Shown: in pieces, positions 6,916-61,008 of the stretch | Numbering within the stretch: position 1 is the stretch's first letter | Layout of the letters: every line of letters begins with the position of its first letter | IMG/VR virus record: IMGVR_UViG_3300008963_000727 | Coordinates: 62,001-126,000 of that record | Source of the DNA: a virus | Length of the DNA: 64,000 nucleotides | Strand: one strand, 5' to 3' | Position numbers and translations under genes: made by a program | Notes under the pieces: generated by a model | Seen by the model: the letters and a program-made list of their open reading frames with translations, nothing else | Databases searched by the model: none | Told to the model about the DNA's origin: nothing

Positions 6916-8466
6916 ATGCGTTCAAAAGAATTTCTTTTTGAGTATGACCGAGACAAAACCATTGAACAAATGGGTACTGCTATCGCGAATACTGCAAAAT
7001 TGGACAACCCACGAATTAAAGACGAAGAACTTGCACCAGAACAAATTTATGCTCTTAGTCAAAATGTTCTGAGTAGAATAGAATCCGTTGACCCCACCCC
7101 TAATAAAAAATATGTTCTATGGATTGTTCGTCAGTTTGTGAAAAATAGTTTGAAGCTTGAAGATATCAATGAGTTTTTACGCAATGATATCCAAGATTTT
7201 CACGAGTTACCAAAGCAAAGAAAGCAACAACTTGGTATTGAGACGGATATAAACAAATACACTTGGCGTGATTTGCGAGAAATTGCCACTAAACTCAAAA
7301 AAGCCACTGATTTAGAAGAACCAGTTGATGCGAATCTTGATTATGAACATATTGACGATATGGAGGTGCTTTATGTCGGAGATATGGGACAGTTAATTAT
7401 TCCACGTACTACCGAGGCTTCTTGTGAAATTGGTAGTGGTACTCGTTGGTGTACGGCTGCCACTCAGTCAGATAATATGTTTAGAAACTATTCAAAGCAA
7501 GGTCCTTTATATGTGTGGATTCCTTCACGCAAGATGCCAGAGAAAAAACAAAGCAACAAGTTCCAATTTCATTTTGGTGAAGATTTCCAATTCATGGACG
7601 AAAACGACGAAAGAATAGACTCTGAATTGCTGCAATATTTTAGAACCAAACATCCAGTGCTTAAAAAGGTATTTGCCAAAAGTGAAGAAGCGATTAAACA
7701 GGACCCAAGAAAAGCTTATTATTATGCCGATGACGCTATCGGTGGCAGATTTCCAGAGGGTGAAGAAGCGATTAAACAAAGCCCACAATATGCTTTTATG
7801 TATGCACGTGATTTTATCAAAGGTAGGTGGCCAGAAGGTGAAGAAGCGATTAAACAAAATCCATACTATGCTTTTGCGTATGCACGTGATTTTATCAAAG
7901 GTAGGTGGCCAGAAGCGGAAGAACAAATTAAACAATATCAACCACCTTGGAACAAGTACAAAGAATTTTTTGATATTGACGACGAAGTTCAAGAAGATGT
8001 TTCATCCACCTCAAGTGAAGAGTATGATGAATTAACACAAAAAAACTTTGGTGATAAATCTCCAGAAGTTGTTGATTTAGCCAAACAAAGCAAACAAGCA
8101 TTACAAGCGTTTTATCCTAATGGTGAATTAAAAACAATGAAGTCAGGCACTGGCAACTTTGTGACGCAATGGTATGAAACACCAGAAGAAATCTTTCTTA
8201 TCGGTATCAATAGTAAAAGTAGACGACTTCTTAAAAACGATATTGAAGATGTAAAAACATTTATCAATATGTTGATATCGGCAATGCAAAACGGCAAGAC
8301 TCTAATTACAAGTCCCCATAAAAAGTCAATGCAAATGTTAAATAATGTTCAGAAGATAGCAGAAAAGCGTGGCTTAAACTTCTCTATGGATGTTAGTGAT
8401 AGTGTTAGTTTTGGTGATGATGATCCTGAACTCGAATTCTTCCAAGTTCAAGCAGAAATAAATTAA
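6916..8466 (+). CDS. virion-type protein with WCTA motif and 26-residue repeats
   Basis: A 516-residue late protein. The ATG at 6916 is chosen over an upstream one at 6817 because the added segment overlaps the promoter and looks non-coding. The N-terminus MRSKEFLFE resembles a capsid-targeting peptide with an L-x-E cleavage site. Around residues 170-200 lies GSGTRWCTAA followed by GPLYVWIP, a motif I know from phage proteins of unknown function. Residues 256-333 are three tandem 26-residue units (GEEAIKQ...YARDFIKGRWPE) that should fold as helical hairpins. The C-terminal third is acidic. Function unknown; packaging into the head is inferred. Confidence 0.7.
   Translation: MRSKEFLFEYDRDKTIEQMGTAIANTAKLDNPRIKDEELAPEQIYALSQNVLSRIESVDPTPNKKYVLWIVRQFVKNSLKLEDINEFLRNDIQDFHELPKQRKQQLGIETDINKYTWRDLREIATKLKKATDLEEPVDANLDYEHIDDMEVLYVGDMGQLIIPRTTEASCEIGSGTRWCTAATQSDNMFRNYSKQGPLYVWIPSRKMPEKKQSNKFQFHFGEDFQFMDENDERIDSELLQYFRTKHPVLKKVFAKSEEAIKQDPRKAYYYADDAIGGRFPEGEEAIKQSPQYAFMYARDFIKGRWPEGEEAIKQNPYYAFAYARDFIKGRWPEAEEQIKQYQPPWNKYKEFFDIDDEVQEDVSSTSSEEYDELTQKNFGDKSPEVVDLAKQSKQALQAFYPNGELKTMKSGTGNFVTQWYETPEEIFLIGINSKSRRLLKNDIEDVKTFINMLISAMQNGKTLITSPHKKSMQMLNNVQKIAEKRGLNFSMDVSDSVSFGDDDPELEFFQVQAEIN
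7681..7914 (+). repeat. three tandem 78-bp coding repeats
   Basis: Units begin at 7681, 7759 and 7837, each encoding a 26-residue repeat that starts [SG]EEAIKQ and ends GR[WF]PE. The second and third differ at only a few bases, so expansion is recent; a partial fourth unit follows. Confidence 0.9.
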
Positions 8467-8470
8467 AATT

Positions 8471-9640
8471 ATGTTGTCTGAAACTTTTTGTAGTAAGCCA
8501 TGGAAAAACTTAGAAATTAATGCGGATGGTAGTGTAGCACCATGTTGTATTTGGGGTGATAGGCTTAAAGATAAAAACAATTTAGAATTTAATGTTAATA
8601 AAAATTCTTTTTATGAGATTTATAATAGCAATCATCTAAAAAAATTACGCTCTGATTTATCAAACAATAAAAAACCTATTTCCTGTGCTCAATGCTGGCA
8701 AGAAGAAGATAATGGTATTATGAGTTTGAGGCAAAAAGAAACTGATTTTAATGGTGATGTTCAAAGTCAATTTAGCAGTTTATCAATTGCATTTGGAAAC
8801 ATATGCAATTTGCGGTGTCGAATATGTGGGCCGTGGGCAAGTAGTATCTGGGCAAAAAATGAATTAAAAACCCATTCTGATGAAGAAAAACGCAGTTCGT
8901 TTGAATTTGAAATTCTTAAAAAAGGACAATGGCCTATAACATCAAAAGTATTTTGGGAGGATTTAGAAAATTACCTTCCATTATTATCCAAAATAAGTTT
9001 TTATGGTGGTGAACCGTTCCTGATAAATCAGCACTTTCAACTACTTGAAAAATTTTCAAATACTAGCGATGTTTCAAATATTGAAATAGACTATGTTACT
9101 AATGGAACAATATTACCAAATAAAGATATTATTGAAAGTTGGAAAAAATTCAAAAGTGTTGATATAATGGTTAGTATAGATAATATCTTTGAAAAATTTG
9201 AATATGAAAGATCAAAATCTGATTGGAATACATTAGTTAAAAACTTGGATGCATTTGAGCAGTTGGCTAATAAAAATACAAATATCTCATTATCATGTAA
9301 TATGACTGTCAGCGTTTTTAATATATTAGACTTTAAAAAAATTATAAGATGGATGAAAGAACATTATCCCCTAATGCATATTAATTGGAGTATGTTAATT
9401 GTTGAAGAACGATTTTGTGTCAAGTATCTGCCGCAAGACATAAAAGAAAAAATTGAAGAAGCCTTGTTACCTCACGATACCGATGATATTAATAATATTA
9501 TTAAATTTATGAATGATGGTGAATCTAATTTTGATTATTTTAATGAATTAAAATCTGAAATTAAAAGAATAGATTTATTTCGTGAAGAAAAATTAGTTGA
9601 TTCTCATCCTGAATTAAACAGTCTTCTCAAAATTTACTAA
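8471..9640 (+). CDS. radical SAM protein with N-terminal SPASM/twitch-like Cys cluster
   Basis: A 389-residue protein. Cys112, Cys116 and Cys119 (ICNLRCRICG) form the CxxxCxxC site for the SAM-bound 4Fe-4S cluster, and FYGGEPFL is the GGEP SAM-binding motif. Ahead of the core are Cys7, Cys25, Cys26, Cys72 and Cys75, with the phrase NADGSVAPCC typical of SPASM/twitch auxiliary-cluster segments, here placed at the N-terminus. Such enzymes modify peptides or small molecules by radical chemistry; the substrate is unknown. It begins 4 nt after the repeat protein and shares its late promoter. It is one of five radical SAM proteins in the window. Confidence 0.85.
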   Translation: MLSETFCSKPWKNLEINADGSVAPCCIWGDRLKDKNNLEFNVNKNSFYEIYNSNHLKKLRSDLSNNKKPISCAQCWQEEDNGIMSLRQKETDFNGDVQSQFSSLSIAFGNICNLRCRICGPWASSIWAKNELKTHSDEEKRSSFEFEILKKGQWPITSKVFWEDLENYLPLLSKISFYGGEPFLINQHFQLLEKFSNTSDVSNIEIDYVTNGTILPNKDIIESWKKFKSVDIMVSIDNIFEKFEYERSKSDWNTLVKNLDAFEQLANKNTNISLSCNMTVSVFNILDFKKIIRWMKEHYPLMHINWSMLIVEERFCVKYLPQDIKEKIEEALLPHDTDDINNIIKFMNDGESNFDYFNELKSEIKRIDLFREEKLVDSHPELNSLLKIY

Positions 9641-37694: not shown

Positions 37695-37720
37695 AACAAT
37701 AGATGCAGTTTAATTGATTG

Positions 37721-38893
37721 ATGCCTATGTTTTCTACTTTAAAACAAAAATATAAAAGAAGGTTTGAACTTTTTAAACAAACAAATCATTTTTGTAGTGT
37801 TCCATGGAATTTACTCTATGTTAACATGACAGGGGAAATATACTCGTGTACAAACGGCAATTACCAACTAGGTGATTTGAAAACAAATTCTATGGAAGAA
37901 ATTATCGGCAATGCAGAAAGAAAAAAAATCAAAGAATACATCATTAAAGACAAAAAGACGAAAAATTGTAAGAATTGTTTAAAATTAGAAAATCTTCAAG
38001 AAAGTAAAAAATACAATCATTTGCGGGGAATGTATAACAATCTCTTTAAAAAAAATGATATAGACTATGATGATACAAACTCTTTCACTTTGGGTGGATT
38101 AGATTTACACTGGAGCAGTGTATGTAATTTAAAATGTGTTACTTGCTGGGCTGGACAAAGTAGCCTTATAGCAAAAGAGCAAGGGCTTCCAGTTCAACAT
38201 ACTCCACCAGAAGCCGCTGCAAAATTAATTGACTGGGTTGAAAATAATCAAGATAATTTAAGAGAAGTATATTTGAGTGGTGGCGAACCCACATATATTA
38301 ATTATAACTTAGATCTTCTAAAGAAATTGGAAAAACGTCCAGACTTGCTTATTAGAGTAAATTCTAATATGATGTGGGAAAAAAATAATAAAATTTTATC
38401 AGAAATATTAAAGTTCCCAAATGTATTATTCACGTGTAGTGCAGATTCAATAGATAAAAAATTTGAGTACATAAGACGTGGGGCCAAATGGGATAAATTT
38501 GTTGATAACATAAATTTTTTGCAATCACAAAAAAATGTAAAAGTAAGAATAAATTTAGTATTTTTTGTCTTGAACGGAACTTCTATTACTGATATAATAG
38601 ATTTTTTCCATGACAATATAGGCGTAAGAGATTTTACAATTAATCAGTGTCAGATGGGTCATACTTACTTGAGATGTAGAAATTTACCAGATGAAAGCAA
38701 AAAAAAGGCTAAAGAAAATCTTTTAGCGGCAAAAGAAAAATATTCACATGATTTGAATTTGGTAGGGCAATTTACTAATTGCTTAAATGAGTTAGAAAAC
38801 GACAAATCTGAAAATTATAACAATTATTTAAATCATATTGATAACATAGCTGGGTCTAATTGGAAAAATGTGTTCTGGGATCTATCTCTATGA
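37721..38893 (+). CDS. radical SAM protein with N-terminal SPASM/twitch-like Cys cluster
   Basis: A 390-residue protein. Cys135, Cys139 and Cys142 (VCNLKCVTCWAG) bind the radical SAM cluster and YLSGGEPTYI is the GGEP motif. The N-terminal part has Cys25, Cys43, Cys83 and Cys86 in a NMTGEIYSCTNG setting, like the protein at 8471, so the two are related. The ATG at 37721 is used. The SDR-like gene follows with an ATGA overlap, suggesting the two act on one substrate. Substrate unknown. Confidence 0.82.
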   Translation: MPMFSTLKQKYKRRFELFKQTNHFCSVPWNLLYVNMTGEIYSCTNGNYQLGDLKTNSMEEIIGNAERKKIKEYIIKDKKTKNCKNCLKLENLQESKKYNHLRGMYNNLFKKNDIDYDDTNSFTLGGLDLHWSSVCNLKCVTCWAGQSSLIAKEQGLPVQHTPPEAAAKLIDWVENNQDNLREVYLSGGEPTYINYNLDLLKKLEKRPDLLIRVNSNMMWEKNNKILSEILKFPNVLFTCSADSIDKKFEYIRRGAKWDKFVDNINFLQSQKNVKVRINLVFFVLNGTSITDIIDFFHDNIGVRDFTINQCQMGHTYLRCRNLPDESKKKAKENLLAAKEKYSHDLNLVGQFTNCLNELENDKSENYNNYLNHIDNIAGSNWKNVFWDLSL

Positions 38894-51914: not shown

Positions 51915-53114
51915 ATGTCTGATAATAGAGAATTCATTGACTATGTAGAGTTTTATATAACGCATACCTGTAATTTTAATTGTGAAGGCTGTAATAGGTT
52001 CAACAATTATGCATTTACTGGTCATCAACGATGGAGTGATTATAAAGACATTTACGAAAAGTGGTCAAAAAGACTAAAATTTAATGATTATTATATTTTA
52101 GGTGGTGAGCCAATGAGCAACCCAGACCTACTTGAATGGATTTCGGGAATTAGACATCTATGGGGAGAAACTAATAATGCAACGCTGGTGACTAATGGAA
52201 GCTATGAAAAAAAATTTAACCAAGAACTGTATAAAACTTTATTAGAAAACAAAACAAATGTTAGCATTGGACTGCATAATGTAGATCGTCGTGATCACAT
52301 ATTAGAAACAGTTCTTTCATTTTTGCATCATCCAGTTAAAATCTTTCAAACACCCGCATATGATTTTCTCCCAAAATTAACTCATACAAATGATATTTGC
52401 TCTGGATTGCCTGAATTAAATAAAATGTTTCATCATGAATTAGAGTTTTTAGTAAAAACATTTTATTTTTGGAAAAGCATTAATGATCGTTACCAACAAA
52501 TAAAGCCAAGTAAAGAATGGGTATCAAAAATCACATCAATGAATGAATGGAACAATCTTGAAGAAAGATTTAAAAAAGAAGCAACAGAGCGATATGATTT
52601 TAATGTAGATGAAGAAAAGCATCACCAGACTGAATATTTAATAATTGATAAAAACCACGTCAAAGTAAAAATTTGCTTAGAAGATTTTTTTCATCAAGGA
52701 GCATTAAAAATTAAGCCGGAAACAAATAGTTTTACACTACATGACAGCGATCCAGTAAAAGCACATGAAATTTGCCACACCAAACATTCTCATCACTTCA
52801 TAAATGGAAAACTAAACAAGTGTGGAACCTCAGTAATTTTTAGTGAATTTGATAAACAATTTAATTTAGATTTGTCAGAAAAAGATAGAGAATTAATTTA
52901 TACAGCCCCAGTGGGACACATTGATATGACAGATGAACAACTATCAGAGTTTGTTGGCAATTTAAAAAATCACATTCCACAATGTAAATTTTGTCCTCAA
53001 AATTACGAATACAAAAAAATTTACTCGTCTTCAAAAAAGAGTACATTTGGAAGAAAAAGAAAACTAAATACCACAATCAAAGAACACAAGTATGAATATA
53101 CAAGACCTTTTTGA
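51915..53114 (+). CDS. radical SAM protein
   Basis: A 399-residue protein with Cys19, Cys23 and Cys26 (ITHTCNFNCEGCNRFNNY) very near the N-terminus and YYILGGEPMSNP as the GGEP-type motif. The C-terminal part has further Cys in ICHTKHSHHFINGKLNKCGT and QCKFCPQNY, possibly auxiliary-cluster ligands, and ends in a very basic tail. It starts 9 nt after the 51084 gene; the 53092 gene starts within its last 23 nt. Substrate unknown. Confidence 0.8.
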   Translation: MSDNREFIDYVEFYITHTCNFNCEGCNRFNNYAFTGHQRWSDYKDIYEKWSKRLKFNDYYILGGEPMSNPDLLEWISGIRHLWGETNNATLVTNGSYEKKFNQELYKTLLENKTNVSIGLHNVDRRDHILETVLSFLHHPVKIFQTPAYDFLPKLTHTNDICSGLPELNKMFHHELEFLVKTFYFWKSINDRYQQIKPSKEWVSKITSMNEWNNLEERFKKEATERYDFNVDEEKHHQTEYLIIDKNHVKVKICLEDFFHQGALKIKPETNSFTLHDSDPVKAHEICHTKHSHHFINGKLNKCGTSVIFSEFDKQFNLDLSEKDRELIYTAPVGHIDMTDEQLSEFVGNLKNHIPQCKFCPQNYEYKKIYSSSKKSTFGRKRKLNTTIKEHKYEYTRPF

Positions 53115-54335: not shown

Positions 54336-56513
54336 ATGTCTTATATTGATTGTTTATTTGATCGTAAACGAGATCGCATTCACGTAGTCGGCAGAGAAGG
54401 TAATGAAAGATATTATACAGAATATCCAGCCTCTTATGTGTTTTACTATGATGACCCAAAAGGAAAGTTCCGTAGCATTTACGGCACTCCTGTAAGCCGA
54501 TTCAGCACAAAAAGCAATAAAGAATTTAGAAGAGAGCAAAACTCACACGCTGGAAAACAGTTGTATGAGGCTGATATTAACCCTGTGTTTCGGTGTTTAG
54601 CAGATAATTATTTAAACGCTGAAGCACCAACTCTTCATACTGCATTTTTTGACATTGAGGTTGATTTTGATCCCGAGCGGGGTTACTCGCGTCCAGACGA
54701 TCCATTCACGCCTATCACTGCCATTACCGTTTACCTAGACTGGCTAGACAGATTGGTAACGTTTGCTATGCCACCAAAGCATATGAGTATGGAGACTGCA
54801 ACAGAAATCGGTGATAAGTTTGACGACACGTTTATGTTTGAGCGTGAAGAAGATTTACTTGAGGCGTTTTTAGAAGTTATTCAAGATGCCGATGTTCTCT
54901 CTGGGTGGAACTCAGAGGGATATGATATTCCATACACTGTCCTTCGTATAACAAAAGTCCTAAGCAAAGATGATACGCGAAAACTATGTCTATGGGATCA
55001 ATTGCCAAAGCAAAGAGAGTTTGAAAGGTTCGGTGCTGAACAAGTTACATTTGACCTTGTTGGTCGGGTGCATATGGACTATATGCAGTTGTATCGGAAA
55101 TACACATACGAAGAAAGGCATAGTTACAGTCTTGATGCCATATTGGATTACGAAGATCTTGGCTCCAAAACTGTATATGAAGGGACTCTTGATCAACTAT
55201 ATAATCAAAACTTTGAAACATTCATTGAATATAATAGACAGGATGTTCGTGGCCTTGCACAGATTGACAAAAAGTTAAGATTCTTAGATCTTGCAAACAA
55301 ACTAGCACACGAAAACACTGTTCTTCTACCTACTACAATGGGTGCTGTTGCCGTTACAGAACAGGCAATTATTAACGAAGCACATGAAAGGGGACTAGTA
55401 GTTCCCAACCGTAAAAAAGATTTATCTACTGAAGAAATGCAAGCCGCTGGTGCATATGTGGCACACCCGAAGCGTGGAATGCATGATTGGATTGGTTCTG
55501 TTGATATTAACAGTCTGTACCCATCAGTCATTCGGGCGTTGAACATGGGTCCAGAAACAATCGCAGGTCAACTTCGTCCTATTATGACTGACCAATTAAT
55601 AAAAAGTCGCATGGAAAAAGGAATGGGATTTGCTGCTGCATGGGAGGGACTTTTTGCTACCTTAGAATATACTGCAGTTATGGATCAAGAAATAGGAACC
55701 GAAATTACTATTGACTGGGAGTCAGGTGAATCAGAAACATATAGTGCTGCAGAAATTTGGAAGTTAATTTTTGATTCAAACAAACCATGGGCATTAAGTG
55801 CCAATGGAACCATTTTTACATATGAGTTTGATGGCGTTATACCCGGTCTTTTGCAGAGATGGTATGCAGAAAGAAAAGAGTTACAGAAAAAATTAGGTGA
55901 GGCCAACACAGAAGCTGATACTGAATATTGGGATAAGCGACAGTTGGTTAAGAAGATTAATCTTAACTCTCTCTATGGTGCCATTCTAAACCCGGGATGT
56001 AGATTTTTTGATAAGCGTATTGGACAATCTACGACACTGACAGGAAGATCAATTGCCAAGCATATGGATGCCTATACCAATGAGTGTATTACTGGAGAAT
56101 ATGACCATATTGGTGATGCAATAATATACGGAGATAGTGTCACTGGCGATACACTAATTAAAATTTCCGATGGTAGCTCTATTCCTATAGAGAAATTATT
56201 TAATCAAATTTCATATAAAGTAATTCAAGATGGAAATAAGGAATATGCTATCCCCACTTCTGATTATGATTCTTATGAAGTCTTGGGTTACAATAGTCAC
56301 GATGATCAGGCGGTATGGCGTAAAATATCTTATGTCATGAGGCATGAAACAAAAAAGAAAAAATATAAAGTGACTAGTGAAACTGGAAAAGAAATAATTG
56401 TTACTGAAGACCATAGTTTAATAATTGATCGAGATGGATTTACACTAGAAGTTTCTCCCTTAGAATTGAAAACTGATGACTATCTTATAACATACACAGA
56501 TGAAAAAAATTAA
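54336..56513 (+). CDS. 43: family B DNA polymerase gp43, N-terminal part, fused to N-intein
   Basis: A 725-residue protein: residues 1-600 are the polymerase N-extein, residues 601-725 an N-terminal intein. The exonuclease shows HTAFFDIEVDFD; polymerase motif A is SVDINSLYPSVIRA and motif B is KKINLNSLYGAILNPG. The extein stops at IIYGD, exactly inside motif C (YGDTDS). The intein starts Ser-Val-Thr-Gly-Asp-Thr-Leu (block A) and includes IIVTEDHSLI (block B with T-x-x-H). The rest of motif C and the thumb come from the gene at 57670. Joined, the polymerase is 885 residues, close to T4 gp43 (898). Confidence 0.93.
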   Translation: MSYIDCLFDRKRDRIHVVGREGNERYYTEYPASYVFYYDDPKGKFRSIYGTPVSRFSTKSNKEFRREQNSHAGKQLYEADINPVFRCLADNYLNAEAPTLHTAFFDIEVDFDPERGYSRPDDPFTPITAITVYLDWLDRLVTFAMPPKHMSMETATEIGDKFDDTFMFEREEDLLEAFLEVIQDADVLSGWNSEGYDIPYTVLRITKVLSKDDTRKLCLWDQLPKQREFERFGAEQVTFDLVGRVHMDYMQLYRKYTYEERHSYSLDAILDYEDLGSKTVYEGTLDQLYNQNFETFIEYNRQDVRGLAQIDKKLRFLDLANKLAHENTVLLPTTMGAVAVTEQAIINEAHERGLVVPNRKKDLSTEEMQAAGAYVAHPKRGMHDWIGSVDINSLYPSVIRALNMGPETIAGQLRPIMTDQLIKSRMEKGMGFAAAWEGLFATLEYTAVMDQEIGTEITIDWESGESETYSAAEIWKLIFDSNKPWALSANGTIFTYEFDGVIPGLLQRWYAERKELQKKLGEANTEADTEYWDKRQLVKKINLNSLYGAILNPGCRFFDKRIGQSTTLTGRSIAKHMDAYTNECITGEYDHIGDAIIYGDSVTGDTLIKISDGSSIPIEKLFNQISYKVIQDGNKEYAIPTSDYDSYEVLGYNSHDDQAVWRKISYVMRHETKKKKYKVTSETGKEIIVTEDHSLIIDRDGFTLEVSPLELKTDDYLITYTDEKN
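56136..56510 (+). other. N-terminal half of a split intein
   Basis: This part encodes 125 residues from nucleophile Ser601 to the stop. Blocks A (SVTGDTLIKISDG) and B (VTEDHSLI) are present; no endonuclease motifs are seen. The insertion point corresponds to the known pol-c site in family B polymerases. Confidence 0.9.
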
Positions 56514-56555
56514 AAAGAATAAAAATTCTATTTTTTAAAAAACTAAGTATTTTGT

Positions 56556-57659
56556 ATGTCAGTTCAACTTAATAATATTGTTTCTATAAGTTCTCTTGAA
56601 AGCCCAGAACATGCCAAAAATAAAGATCCAAAAGTTTTAACAGTCAGTTGGATGATTGGGAAACGATGTAATTATGATTGCTCATATTGTCCTTCATGGT
56701 CCCATGATTCATTTAGCCCACACTTACCAATAGAAGATATTAAAAAAACCATAGATAGTATAAGTCATTGGACGATATTAAATGACAAAAAATTTAAAAT
56801 AGATTTTACGGGCGGTGAACCATTCATTCATCCTGACTTTTTAGATGTACTAAAATATATTGATAGCAAAAATAATACATATTCAATTGGAGTAGTCACT
56901 AATGGAAGTGCAGAGTTGGGCACATACTTAGAGGCTAGTAGATATTTATCCAATATGACAATTAGCTTACACATAGAAGAATCTGAAGAAATTATAGAAA
57001 AAACTATAGAAAAAATAGTTTATATTAACAATAATACATCTATGTTTATAAATGTCAATGTAATGGCTGCAGCAGGAAAAGTTAAAAATATTCCTGATAT
57101 TGTTAAATTTTTCAATGAAAAACAAATAAATTTTACTATCAACAAAATCAATCTGCCTGAAATTGACCCTGACCGTGAGAAAAAAATATCTAGAAAACAA
57201 TATAAAGAAAAAAAGAAATATTTTGATATAAAAACTAACGTTTACAAAAATTTACATAGATTAAAATCGTCAAATAAAAAAATAAAAGAATATTATACAA
57301 AAGAAGAATTAAAAATAATAGAAAAATATCAAAGTTTGAAGGAATGGCAAGATACACGGGTACATTACAAATCACACACAGAAGAAAAAAATTCTCTTGT
57401 ATTATTGAGCAATGGTTTGGCAAATTTTATGGGGTGGCATTGTTACATTGGTATTGATTGTATTTATATAAATTATGATGGATTTATATACAGAGGATTC
57501 TGTTATGCTGGTGGTCCTATTGGACGCATATCTGACTTCGATATAAGATGGCCTGATAAAACGATCACCTGTCCTCATAGCATATGCTCTTGTAACTCAG
57601 ATATACGCACCAGAAAAGCAAAAAACACACAATATTTAAATAAAATAACTGGTAATTAG
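56556..57659 (+). CDS. radical SAM protein located in the polymerase break
   Basis: A 367-residue protein with Cys38, Cys42 and Cys45 (KRCNYDCSYCPSW) and DFTGGEPFIHPDF. The middle has a long Lys-rich helical region, and the C-terminal part has further Cys (GWHCYIGIDC, YRGFCYAGG, CPHSICSCN) that look like SPASM-type auxiliary cluster ligands. It lies in the same direction between the two polymerase genes, 42 nt after the first and 10 nt before the second. Homing endonuclease motifs (LAGLIDADG, GIY-YIG, HNH) are absent. It is AT-richer than the polymerase parts by eye. Substrate unknown. Confidence 0.82.
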   Translation: MSVQLNNIVSISSLESPEHAKNKDPKVLTVSWMIGKRCNYDCSYCPSWSHDSFSPHLPIEDIKKTIDSISHWTILNDKKFKIDFTGGEPFIHPDFLDVLKYIDSKNNTYSIGVVTNGSAELGTYLEASRYLSNMTISLHIEESEEIIEKTIEKIVYINNNTSMFINVNVMAAAGKVKNIPDIVKFFNEKQINFTINKINLPEIDPDREKKISRKQYKEKKKYFDIKTNVYKNLHRLKSSNKKIKEYYTKEELKIIEKYQSLKEWQDTRVHYKSHTEEKNSLVLLSNGLANFMGWHCYIGIDCIYINYDGFIYRGFCYAGGPIGRISDFDIRWPDKTITCPHSICSCNSDIRTRKAKNTQYLNKITGN

Positions 57660-57669
57660 GCTAGTACAC

Positions 57670-57798
57670 ATGAATATAGTACGAGAAAAAATAAAATCCA
57701 TTGAAGAGATTAAAAGTAACGACGAAGAATATGTTTATGATATAAGCATTGCGAATGGTGATCCATTTTTCTTCGGCAATGACGTACTTTTACATAAT
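57670..57798 (+). other. C-terminal half of a split intein
   Basis: A 43-residue C-intein ending Leu-Leu-His-Asn, with Thr as the +1 residue of the C-extein. The His-Asn pair and hydroxyl +1 residue are as needed for splicing. Confidence 0.9.
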
Positions 57799-58656
57799 AC
57801 TGATAGTTGTTATTTTACAGCATGGCCGATGGTTAAAAACGAAGTTGAATCTGGCGAGATGTCTTGGGATAAAGAAACTGTTATCCAACTTTATGATGGC
57901 ATTGCTGATCAAGTAAGCAGCAGTTTCCCTGCATTTATGGAACAAGCATTCCACAGTCCTCGCCATATGGGGCAACTTATAAAGTGTGCTCGTGAAATTG
58001 TCGCTTCTCGTGGATTGTTTATTAAAAAGAAACGGTATGCAGTCATGGTGGTAGACAATGAAGGCAAGCGACTTGATAAAAATGGTAAGCCGGGCAAGGT
58101 AAAACCAATGGGTTTGGATCTTAAAAGGTCAGACACGCCCAAGGTGATACAAGACTTTTTAAGTGAAGTACTTGCTACAGTTCTAGATGCAGCAACAACA
58201 GAAGAAGTCATTGAGAGAATTCGTGATTTCAAGAAAGAGTTTACACAGCGACCGGGCTGGGAAAAAGGTTCACCCAAGCGTGTTAATAACCTGACTATGT
58301 ACAGTCAGCGTGAGAAGCGTAATGGAAAGACAAATATGCCGGGTCATGTTCGTGCTGCAATGAACTGGAACGATATGAAAAAGATGAATTCAGACAATTA
58401 CAGTATGAGTATCATGGACGGTATGAAGGTTATTGTTTGTAAATTAAAGACCAACGCACTTGGATGGACTTCTATTGCATATCCAACAGATGAGTCAAGG
58501 TTGCCTGACTGGTTCAAAGAATTGCCGTTTGATGATGCTGATATGGAAGCAACAGTTATTGATAAAAAACTAGACAACTTACTGGGTGTTCTAGAGTGGG
58601 ATTTGTCTAGTACCACAAACACAGAAAATACATTTCAGGATATGTTTGAATTCTAA
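57670..58656 (+). CDS. 43: family B DNA polymerase gp43, C-terminal part, fused to C-intein
   Basis: A 328-residue protein. Residues 1-43 are the C-terminal intein (block F YVYDISIANG, block G VLLHN), residues 44-328 the C-extein, starting TDSCYFTAWP, which completes YGD-TDS. The palm and thumb follow (KKKRYAVMVVDNEG, MGLDLKRSDTPK). The last residues, FQDMFEF, match the clamp-binding tail of T4-like gp43 (T4-type LFDMFDF), so the C-terminus is intact. Trans-splicing would give the full enzyme. The next gene overlaps its stop by TAATG. Confidence 0.93.
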   Translation: MNIVREKIKSIEEIKSNDEEYVYDISIANGDPFFFGNDVLLHNTDSCYFTAWPMVKNEVESGEMSWDKETVIQLYDGIADQVSSSFPAFMEQAFHSPRHMGQLIKCAREIVASRGLFIKKKRYAVMVVDNEGKRLDKNGKPGKVKPMGLDLKRSDTPKVIQDFLSEVLATVLDAATTEEVIERIRDFKKEFTQRPGWEKGSPKRVNNLTMYSQREKRNGKTNMPGHVRAAMNWNDMKKMNSDNYSMSIMDGMKVIVCKLKTNALGWTSIAYPTDESRLPDWFKELPFDDADMEATVIDKKLDNLLGVLEWDLSSTTNTENTFQDMFEF

Positions 58657-59615
58657 TGGAAAAAGTCAGTGAATTAATCAATTTAAAAAACTTATTGCTT
58701 GACACTAAATGGCAAATTTCTGTCAGAGAGTTTTCCGACAGCATTGAAAAATTTAAATCATATATAGATTTTGTTAAATCAAAAACCAAAATTGATAACT
58801 CTAATTTAAATGCAACACTCACTGATATACAAAGTAAATCAAGCGACTCAGTAGATGCACTTGATGAATATATCAAAAATATTGACTCTCTTATACGAGA
58901 CTGTGATGGCGAACTTAGGGAAATGAGCGTTAAATTAGACCAAGCATCTAATACAGATTCACCAGAACAAATATTAAAGAAGATTTCTGACAGAGAAAAA
59001 ACACACCACGAATTTACAAAATCTTTATTCATTGAAAGATGTAAAATATATAGTAACTGGGAATATCCCGGTATGCACATAAGACCGGGCAACGGAACAT
59101 GGACAAGAAATATAGTTGACTTAGACCCACTATATTTGGTAGATATACACCAAGAGTTGCTTGAACCTATTAAAAAGACTTTTAATGAACACTACCGTTC
59201 ACGGTTGAGATTTAAAACAATATCAGATATAGATAAACCCATATTTGAACAGTTTCCTGATAATCAATTTGGGTTGATAGTCGCAACAGAATTTTTTAAT
59301 CAAAAATCATTAGGAACAATTAAACGATACCTTAACGAAGTTTTTTCATTACTCAAAGATGGCGGAATGTTTATATTTACATTTAACAACTGCGACTTTC
59401 CTGAAGGGGCTAGGAACAGTGAGCATAACTATGACTGTTATACGCCGGGAAATGAAGTAAAAGAAATCGCAAAAACCATTGGATTTGAAATTATTGACAA
59501 TGTCACTTCTAACGGAACGCTGTCATGGATTGAGGTGCGTCGACCGGGGGTACTAAATTCACTAAGAGGCGGTCAACCACTGGCTCGGATTAAACAAAAC
59601 CACAAAAACAATTAA
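58656..59615 (+). CDS. coiled-coil plus SAM-dependent methyltransferase-like protein
   Basis: A 319-residue protein. Residues 1-120 form a coiled coil or helical bundle. Residues 130-290 look like a class I methyltransferase: YSNWEYPGMHIRPGNGTWTR, PLYLVDIHQELLEPI (acidic strand-2 end), FPDNQFGLIVATEFFNQKSL (motif IV), LLKDGGMFIFTFNNCDF (motif VI). A canonical GxGxG loop is not obvious, so activity is uncertain. It lies between the polymerase and the clamp with TAATG overlap, an unusual place for a methyltransferase, and might act in replication. Confidence 0.65.
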   Translation: MEKVSELINLKNLLLDTKWQISVREFSDSIEKFKSYIDFVKSKTKIDNSNLNATLTDIQSKSSDSVDALDEYIKNIDSLIRDCDGELREMSVKLDQASNTDSPEQILKKISDREKTHHEFTKSLFIERCKIYSNWEYPGMHIRPGNGTWTRNIVDLDPLYLVDIHQELLEPIKKTFNEHYRSRLRFKTISDIDKPIFEQFPDNQFGLIVATEFFNQKSLGTIKRYLNEVFSLLKDGGMFIFTFNNCDFPEGARNSEHNYDCYTPGNEVKEIAKTIGFEIIDNVTSNGTLSWIEVRRPGVLNSLRGGQPLARIKQNHKNN

Positions 59616-59629
59616 TATTTGGAGAAAAA

Positions 59630-60361
59630 ATGAGAGATCAATTATTAGATCTAGTACAACATACATACGACCTTGGCTGCATTGACCTTGTTAAAATCAC
59701 AGGCTCAGCAAGTGATACCACTATTAGTGCAGTTGCTGAAGATAGGTCTGTTGTTGTGGATGCAAAATATTCACAGCCTATGAGCGAGTTTCAGGGAACA
59801 TTTGGTATGCCAAACCTCGCAAAACTAAAGATTTTGCTTAACCTATCTGAGTATCGTGACAACGCTAATATAGAGGTTAGTCATCAGAATCGCAATGGCG
59901 AGAGCGTTCCAGTCGGAATTCACTTTGAAAATGCGATTGGTGACTTTAAAAACGATTATCGTTTCATGGCACAAGAGGTTATTGCAGAGAAACTAAAAAC
60001 GCCTAAGTTCAAAGGTGCAAATTGGGACGTGGAATTTGAACCAACGATGGCTGGTATTCAGCGTCTCAAAATGCAAGCACAAGCCAACTCGGAAGAACCA
60101 AATTTTCAAGTCGCTACAGACTCTGGAAATTTAAAGTTTCTGTTTGGTGACCGTAGTACTCACGCAGGTGAATTTGTTTTTCATCCCGGGGTCACTGGCA
60201 ATCTTAAAGGACGCTGGCTTTATAAAGTAAAACAAGTAATTAGTATATTAGATTTGGTTGGCGACAAGACTATGCGTATTAGTGATAGTGGAGTTGCACA
60301 AATCACTGTAAATTCTGGTATTGCAGAATACAACTATATTCTGCCAGCATATACACAATAA
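59630..60361 (+). CDS. 45: sliding clamp (gp45-like)
   Basis: A 243-residue beta-rich protein. SEFQGTFGMPNLAKLKILLN resembles the FGI-NL-L region of T4-type clamps, and the C-terminal half has NLKFLFGDRSTHAGEFVFHP, LKGRWLYKVKQVISILDLVG and a final YNYILPAYTQ, consistent with a clamp fold. T4 gp45 is 228 residues. Clamps also switch on late transcription in T4 with gp33 and gp55. The neighbourhood (polymerase; clamp loader elsewhere in the window) agrees. GGAG precedes the ATG. Confidence 0.75.
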   Translation: MRDQLLDLVQHTYDLGCIDLVKITGSASDTTISAVAEDRSVVVDAKYSQPMSEFQGTFGMPNLAKLKILLNLSEYRDNANIEVSHQNRNGESVPVGIHFENAIGDFKNDYRFMAQEVIAEKLKTPKFKGANWDVEFEPTMAGIQRLKMQAQANSEEPNFQVATDSGNLKFLFGDRSTHAGEFVFHPGVTGNLKGRWLYKVKQVISILDLVGDKTMRISDSGVAQITVNSGIAEYNYILPAYTQ

Positions 60362-61008
60362 TGTTAGATTTTTATATTGAGCGTAGAGATTTTGGGTATG
60401 GCAGTGGATTCATATCTCCAGATGCGACACAATTTTATATTAACATTCCAAAAAGTGCTAGTAGTTTTATTACTTCTTGGATGTTCTTGTCTGGGTGGAC
60501 ATCAACAACAGTAGGAAGATGTGTAATTGATTGGAATAATGTTAATGAAATTATAATTGTAATGCGAGACCCACTTGATAGATGGATTTCAGGTATTTCA
60601 CAATATATAAAAGGAAATATTTTAGAATCTGATGATCCAGAAGGTTTTGGAGAATTTAAAATAAAATATACAGATTTAACAGAAAAAATTATAAAAGATA
60701 ATTTAGATATATTTGATGATCACGTATGGCCCCAGCACTGTTTTTTTGAAAACATTTTACCCGATGCTAAAAGAAAATATATGTATATTGGAAATAATTT
60801 TGAACAATATTTGAAACAAGAGTTAAATTTAGTATATCCCATCCCACCTGACGTTGATTTTAACAAAAGCGAAGATGACCAACAACAAAAAGAACTAAAA
60901 CAGTTTTTTACTGAACGTGTTCAAAAAGATAATAATCTTCGTAATGCAATACAGAATACATACAAGCGAGACTATGAAATTATAAAAAATAATTGCTTAG
61001 TCCGTTAA
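60361..61008 (+). CDS. sulfotransferase-family protein
   Basis: A 215-residue protein with FYINIPKSASSFITSWM, the 5'-phosphosulfate-binding loop (PKSAS instead of PKTGS), and IIVMRDPLDRWISGISQYI, the 3'-phosphate-binding motif. It would move sulfate from PAPS to a glycan or small molecule. It overlaps the clamp stop by TAATG but is probably grouped with the sugar genes to its right. Confidence 0.7.
   Translation: MLDFYIERRDFGYGSGFISPDATQFYINIPKSASSFITSWMFLSGWTSTTVGRCVIDWNNVNEIIIVMRDPLDRWISGISQYIKGNILESDDPEGFGEFKIKYTDLTEKIIKDNLDIFDDHVWPQHCFFENILPDAKRKYMYIGNNFEQYLKQELNLVYPIPPDVDFNKSEDDQQQKELKQFFTERVQKDNNLRNAIQNTYKRDYEIIKNNCLVR

What the first reader, a model, noticed from the sequence alone, without database searches (positions are those of the whole stretch)
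54336..58656. Split-intein DNA polymerase with a radical SAM gene in the break
Gene 43 is broken inside motif C. The first gene ends as IIYGD plus an N-intein (blocks A and B) and the second starts with a 43-aa C-intein (LLHN) followed by TDSCYF. Joining gives YGDTDS and an 885-aa polymerase, with the clamp-binding tail FQDMFEF intact. Fractured genes with split inteins and a free-standing homing endonuclease in the gap are known from marine phage metagenomes (gp41, NrdA, NrdJ types). Here the gap gene (56556-57659) is a radical SAM enzyme, not an endonuclease. It may be passenger cargo, a replacement for a lost endonuclease, or linked to polymerase function.
Basis: partly seen in the sequence, partly recalled or inferred. 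Interest (0 to 1): 0.93.

Follow-up and report, generated by a model that had tools for sequence, protein, structure and literature searches.

The report
Radical SAM gene inside split polymerase
A T4-like phage makes its DNA polymerase as two proteins that a split intein should join, which is a known arrangement; the slot between the halves, normally held by a homing nuclease, here holds an unrelated radical SAM enzyme gene that is most likely passenger cargo.

Summary
A T4-type PolB gene (gp43) is split at motif C. The first ORF ends IIYGD plus a 125-aa N-intein; the second begins with a 43-aa C-intein (LLHN) followed by TDSCYF. The predicted spliced product is 885 aa with all exonuclease, polymerase and clamp motifs. 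Both intein pieces match intein profiles, and no second polB was found in the 194.5-kb record. The intein has no cysteine and carries the Ser1/Thr+1 signatures.

The arrangement is known. Split PolB inteins at motif C occur in Aeromonas Aes123/508, Tenacibaculum PTm1, Campylobacter CP21 and Pseudomonas PA5oct/MIJ3, with a homing-type endonuclease in the gap. In my census of 113 contigs, 80 are split with endonuclease sequence, 20 split without an endonuclease ORF (many with remnants), 11 cis, and only 2 carry another gene: the window (radical SAM) and L097 (cytosine C5 methylase).

The gap gene belongs to a widespread phage/bacterial radical SAM family. None of the ~140 viral relatives fetched lies near a polymerase. 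The phage carries about 13 radical SAM genes, and this one has their AT-rich composition. Best reading: a functional split-intein polymerase whose endonuclease slot holds passenger cargo. Novelty: new variant of a known kind, moderate interest.

The parts
54336..56135 (+). N-extein: exonuclease domain and polymerase motifs A and B, ending ...IIYGD (first half of motif C), 600 aa
   Evidence: PF03104 1.3e-15, PF00136 1.4e-25, phrog_262 2.1e-138; motif positions
56136..56510 (+). N-intein, 125 aa, Ser1, no Cys; block A SVTGDT, motif NX RH (R69 H70), block B TEDH
   Evidence: PF14890 1.9e-8, TIGR01445 49.2 bits over cut-off 24.5, 9HTH 2.8e-13, alignments A1/A4
56514..56555 (+). 42-bp 5' gap, 12% GC, between N-half stop and radical SAM start; no endonuclease remnant
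56556..57659 (+). gap gene: 367-aa radical SAM enzyme (C38-C42-C45 cluster site; C-terminal C296, C316, C339, C344), probable passenger cargo
   Evidence: PF04055 1e-10, family alignment A7, AlphaFold model pLDDT 82 matching MoaA/TigE/EpeE/SkfB/SuiB-type folds
57660..57669 (+). 10-bp 3' gap between radical SAM stop and C-half ATG
57670..57798 (+). C-intein, 43 aa, block F YVYDISI...PFFF, block G VLLHN, no Cys
   Evidence: PF14890 1.2e-4, alignment A5
57799..58656 (+). C-extein: TDSCYF (rest of motif C, Thr+1), KKKRY, clamp-binding tail FQDMFEF, 285 aa
   Evidence: phrog_262 positions 576-853, motif positions

Best explanation
This is a fractured PolB (gp43) gene of the kind known from T4-like and jumbo phages. 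Two precursor proteins are made from adjacent ORFs. The cysteine-less Ser1/Thr+1 split intein halves associate, excise themselves and ligate YGD to TDS, giving one active 885-aa polymerase (inferred from intact motifs; splicing not shown). The slot between the halves, which in most relatives holds a Vsr-type homing endonuclease that probably spread the intein, here holds a radical SAM gene. That gene is passenger cargo from the pool of about 13 radical SAM genes (plus glycosyltransferase, sulfotransferase and methyltransferase genes) scattered between core genes of this phage. It is probably an enzyme that modifies a peptide or another substrate, with no role in splicing or replication. Shown: anatomy, intactness, distribution, decay series in relatives, family. 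Inferred: splicing, order of events, cargo status, substrate class.
For: Anatomy and motifs; no second polB. Same split in many relatives: of 113 de-duplicated contigs or records with both intein halves, 80 split with endonuclease sequence in the gap, 20 split without an endonuclease ORF, 11 cis, 2 with another gene. Decay series: gaps of 29-36 bp with nothing, gaps of about 100-370 bp with recognisable endonuclease remnants. Cultured phages show the same arrangement with a Vsr endonuclease (Aes123, Aes508, PTm1) or no gap gene (Aes516). A second non-nuclease occupant exists: L097, cytosine C5 methylase, E 1.3e-49. The radical SAM family has relatives in phages and bacteria. None of 140 viral loci holds polB nearby, and none of the second set of 80 holds this intein nearby. 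The genome has 13 radical SAM places. GC of the gap gene is 0.286, against exteins 0.40 and other radical SAM genes in the window 0.28-0.30. In L003 two cargo-type genes sit just upstream of polB where the window has none. [quoted passage not shown]
Against: Splicing is not demonstrated. No endonuclease remnant survives in the window, so prior occupancy of this very copy by an endonuclease is inferred from relatives. The window's exteins group with intact polymerases, so the intein could have arrived by homing with the radical SAM gene already in place. Only one contig shows this junction.
Confidence: 0.82

Rival explanations
1. The radical SAM gene rides as cargo of a still mobile intein. An endonuclease supplied in trans by a co-infecting phage cuts intein-less polB, and repair copies both intein halves together with the radical SAM gene (collaborative homing).
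For: Close polymerase relatives are mostly intact, so targets abound. Intein and extein relationships disagree: nearest intein L234 at 57%, nearest exteins intact. Two different cargo genes occur in such gaps.
Against: No relative with the same radical SAM gene in the gap was found. The phage record holds no endonuclease of this family (an empty search without a positive control in that genome).
Confidence: 0.12
2. The radical SAM enzyme has a functional tie to the polymerase or to splicing, for example modifying a residue of the precursor or a DNA base.
For: Co-location inside an essential replication gene; the gene is intact with family cysteines conserved.
Against: None of the viral family loci fetched is near polB. 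Many split polymerases have no gap gene or an endonuclease. In the bacterial set, genes near family members include HlyD and peptidase C39 ABC exporters and glycosyltransferases; in phages other radical SAM genes are common neighbours.
Confidence: 0.03
3. The split is an assembly artefact or a dying gene, and no functional polymerase is made from it.
For: Reads are not available; single contig.
Against: All polymerase and intein motifs intact, no other polB in the record; the split in relatives falls at the same intein position.
Confidence: 0.03

Closest known systems
Aes123 PolB1 / Aes508 / Aes516 split gp43 (Aeromonas phages; structure 9HTH)
   Same: T4-like PolB broken at motif C by a Ser1 split intein of canonical split (Aes123 PolB1 is cysteine-less), with a Vsr endonuclease in the gap (Aes123, Aes508) or no gap gene (Aes516)
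   Different: Intein sits after YIDTD with Ser+1, two residues downstream of the window's YGD|TDS with Thr+1; about 32% N-intein identity; gap gene is an endonuclease or absent
Split PolB intein of Pseudomonas phages PA5oct/MIJ3 (PMC6892783)
   Same: PolB split by N- and C-intein halves around a free-standing gap ORF
   Different: Site YGDTD|S; gap ORF is a Hef/HNH-annotated homing endonuclease
Klebsiella phage KP13-7 split polB
   Same: Same insertion site YGD|S...HN|TDS
   Different: Gap ORF is a Vsr-like endonuclease; the C-half has an extra N-terminal stretch before the C-intein
Fractured genes of marine metagenomes (gp41, NrdA, NrdJ; Dassa et al. 2009, not held in the library, known by citation and memory only)
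   Same: Gene split at an intein, halves adjacent, gap between
   Different: Endonuclease in the gap in the type cases; here a radical SAM enzyme
L097 polB with cytosine C5 methylase in the gap (this work)
   Same: Split intein at motif C with a non-nuclease gene in the gap
   Different: Very diverged polymerase, site TD|S, different cargo
Radical SAM peptide-modifying enzymes (EpeE, SkfB, SuiB, TigE) and MoaA
   Same: Radical SAM core plus C-terminal cysteine-rich extension; best structural matches
   Different: TM-scores only 0.37-0.48 to the query; no Pfam SPASM hit in the window protein; substrate unknown

Membership tests
Class 1 split intein (cysteine-less, Ser1) | Block A with nucleophile at residue 1 | tested here: met
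   SVTGDT directly after YGD
Class 1 split intein (cysteine-less, Ser1) | Block B TxxH and motif NX (R/K)H | tested here: met
   TEDH and R69-H70 aligned as invariant columns; NX defined in PMC10189870
Class 1 split intein (cysteine-less, Ser1) | Block F/G ending HN with Ser/Thr+1 | tested here: met
   YVYDISI...DVLLHN|TDS
Class 1 split intein (cysteine-less, Ser1) | Intein pieces on two separate ORFs, split at the endonuclease-domain position | tested here: met
   125 + 43 aa on two ORFs; no Cys in either; canonical split position described in PMC13014065
Class 1 split intein (cysteine-less, Ser1) | Trans-splicing activity | not testable with these tools
   needs expression
Aes123 PolB1 intein allele | Same insertion point | tested here: not met
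   window YGD|TDS; Aes123 YIDTD|S
Fractured gene with free-standing homing endonuclease | Gene split at an intein with halves in order and close together | tested here: met
Fractured gene with free-standing homing endonuclease | Homing endonuclease gene in the gap | tested here: not met
   gap ORF is radical SAM; no endonuclease remnant
T4-type PolB (gp43) | Exo I-III, motifs A, B, C, KxY, clamp tail after joining | tested here: met
   phrog_262 hits
Radical SAM superfamily | CxxxCxxC cluster motif and core fold | tested here: met
   CNYDCSYC; PF04055 1e-10; model and fold search
Radical SAM/SPASM peptide maturase | SPASM domain detectable by profile | tested here: not met
   no PF13186 hit; a conserved C-terminal cysteine set exists
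Radical SAM/SPASM peptide maturase | Precursor peptide gene next to it | not tested
   no search for a precursor gene was made
Viperin (antiviral ddhCTP synthase) | Score above the curated cut-off | tested here: not met
   54.3 bits against 180 for NF038283

The most novel reading that the evidence does not exclude
Split-intein gaps in phage polymerase genes act as cargo ports. Once the gap endonuclease is lost, non-nuclease genes such as radical SAM enzymes or DNA methylases settle between the halves, are kept because losing either flank kills the polymerase, and can spread with the intein into intein-less relatives when another phage supplies the endonuclease.
Probability: 0.15. Interest if true: 0.7.

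Novelty: new variant of a known kind. Interest (0 to 1): 0.45.

Why it matters
It shows that the slot in a fractured phage gene is not reserved for homing endonucleases: 2 of 113 sampled loci hold a metabolic or DNA-modifying gene instead. That makes a testable model of how selfish-element scars become landing places for cargo. It also supplies a natural cysteine-less Ser1/Thr+1 split intein, a rare class wanted for protein ligation under oxidising conditions, at a site different from the Aes123 one, along with dozens of natural relatives for comparison.

Tried and rejected
Direct scans with the radical SAM protein in viral and genome collections found nothing, and a first motif pattern was mis-spaced by one residue. 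A corrected C-terminal motif found the family. A single-sequence fold was poor (pLDDT 38); the family alignment fixed it. The idea that the gap gene is a viperin was rejected on score and because the match covers only the core. An endonuclease of the gap family elsewhere in the genome was sought and not found. Promoter and terminator scans were at chance level. The tree positions of L097, L098, L019 and L020 rest on very long branches and were not used.

Full report
What is there. ORF 54336-56513 encodes 725 aa, of which 600 are polymerase (exonuclease domain, motifs A and B) ending IIYGD, and 125 are an N-intein starting SVTGDT. ORF 57670-58656 encodes 328 aa: a 43-aa C-intein ending LLHN, then 285 aa of polymerase starting TDSCYF. 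Joining YGD to TDS gives 885 aa with Exo I (106), Exo II (192), Exo III (299), motif A (390), motif B (540), motif C (598), KKKRY (676) and FQDMFEF (879) all present. Without joining, the two aspartates of motif C lie on different proteins. No other polB was found in the 194,522-bp virus record.

Is it an intein? Pfam Intein_splicing matches model positions 18-94 in the first protein and 117-155 in the second. Each half scores under that model's whole-protein gathering score, as expected for halves, while the NCBIfam N-terminal intein model is well over its cut-off (49.2 against 24.5 bits). The best solved relative is 9HTH, the Aes123 PolB1 intein. Ser1, block B TEDH, motif NX RH, the terminal HN and Thr+1 are all present; Ser1, the block B His, the NX RH pair and the terminal HN are conserved in the relatives aligned. 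Neither piece holds a cysteine. Motif NX is the signature of cysteine-less inteins (PMC10189870).

What is known. Split PolB inteins in T4-like phages are described: Aes123 PolB1, CP21 PolB1, LCGC14 PolB2 and GOM-OPS-1 PolB2 (PMC12707363; PMC11923092), and MIJ3 with a homing endonuclease between the halves (PMC6892783). GenBank records show Aes123, Aes508 and PTm1 with a Vsr endonuclease in the gap and Aes516 with none. Unannotated gap ORFs of CP21, Lak-B5, Lak-A1 and VPALA match an endonuclease profile built here from other phages (E 1.6e-41 to 1.9e-60). Aes123 is cut at YIDTD|S, two residues downstream of the window's YGD|TDS. KP13-7 and SCTP-2 share the window's site.

Census of gaps. Two intein scans of IMG/VR, plus phage records, gave 113 de-duplicated loci with both intein pieces: 80 split with endonuclease sequence in the gap, 20 split without an endonuclease ORF, 11 cis, 2 with another gene. 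A few of the 80 hold only fragments of 53-83 aa. Among split loci without an endonuclease ORF, several gaps still encode pieces of the endonuclease (for example 68 residues at 94-100% identity in L044/L046, 149 residues in L058), and others have only 29-36 bp left. One gap holds an IS605 OrfB/TnpB gene next to a shortened endonuclease (L086). The two non-nuclease occupants are the window's radical SAM gene and a full-length cytosine C5 methylase in L097. Full-length endonuclease ORFs typically start about 28 bp after the N-half stop and overlap the C-half start by about 25 bp; the radical SAM gene starts 42 bp after the stop and ends 10 bp before the C-half, with no endonuclease trace.

Descent. 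In a tree of the exteins the window groups with intact polymerases, while its intein is closest to split inteins of other lineages (L234 57%, L021, L022). L022 and L089 have nearly identical exteins but inteins at different sites. This fits a history of horizontal movement by homing. The tree method was the quick one, and several rows are long-branched.

The gap gene. Close-relative scans failed. A pattern made from its C-terminal cysteine region recovered 60 viral and 55 genome loci; 107 ORFs in the set of loci then searched match at E<1e-8, the best ones over 300 or more residues. Alignment of 44 members shows invariant C38, C42, C45 and near-invariant C296, C316, C339 and C344, so the window copy looks functional. 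The AlphaFold model (pLDDT 82) resembles MoaA and peptide-modifying radical SAM enzymes such as TigE, EpeE, SkfB and SuiB. Genes near family members in phages are often other radical SAM genes (19 of 46 neighbours); in the bacterial set they include glycosyltransferases, HlyD proteins and C39-peptidase ABC exporters, which suggests peptide modification and export. The nearest relative found (40%, L369) stands alone near nrd genes. In none of the 140 viral loci from the two searches was a polymerase found within the DNA held; in the second set of 80 no PolB intein was found either. The phage has 13 radical SAM places, and the gap gene shares their low GC (0.286 against 0.40 for the exteins).

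Conclusion. The polymerase is almost certainly assembled by trans-splicing (inferred, not shown). The radical SAM gene most likely is passenger cargo in the slot usually held by the endonuclease. Whether it came in after endonuclease loss, replaced it in one step, or arrived with the intein cannot be told from one contig. A link to polymerase function is not supported. The wider idea that such gaps serve as cargo ports rests on two cases and needs more sampling.

Noticed in passing
L369 9267-10920 (-): Fractured NrdA with a Cys1 split intein whose two ORFs overlap and have no gap gene; a second radical SAM gene (8037-9260) sits between the nrdA C-half and nrdB.
   Followed up: partly
G000 157-168 kb (L180) and window 8471-9640, 37718-38893, 51915-53114: About 13 radical SAM genes in one phage genome, with a cluster of about seven on the minus strand; role unknown, probably peptide or glycan modification.
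   Followed up: partly
L097 8336-9382: Cytosine C5 DNA methylase gene between the halves of a split-intein polB: second example of non-nuclease cargo.
   Followed up: yes
L086 8416-10149: IS605 OrfB/TnpB gene in the polB gap next to a shortened (178 aa) gap endonuclease: a mobile element nested in another.
   Followed up: partly
L022 and L089: Nearly identical polymerase exteins carry inteins at different points of motif C (YGD|TDS and YGDTD|S).
   Followed up: partly
L204 and L308 (same contig 3300022839_000007): A phage with a split-intein polB without a gap endonuclease ORF and, elsewhere in the genome, a relative of the window's gap radical SAM gene.
   Followed up: no
L329, L336, L319, L326 (Vibrio, Photobacterium): Bacterial relatives of the gap enzyme; neighbouring genes in the bacterial set include HlyD and peptidase C39 ABC exporters and glycosyltransferases: a possible undescribed peptide-modification system.
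   Followed up: partly
window 58656-59615, 60361-61008: Methyltransferase and sulfotransferase genes interleaved with replication core genes, AT-rich like the radical SAM cargo.
   Followed up: no
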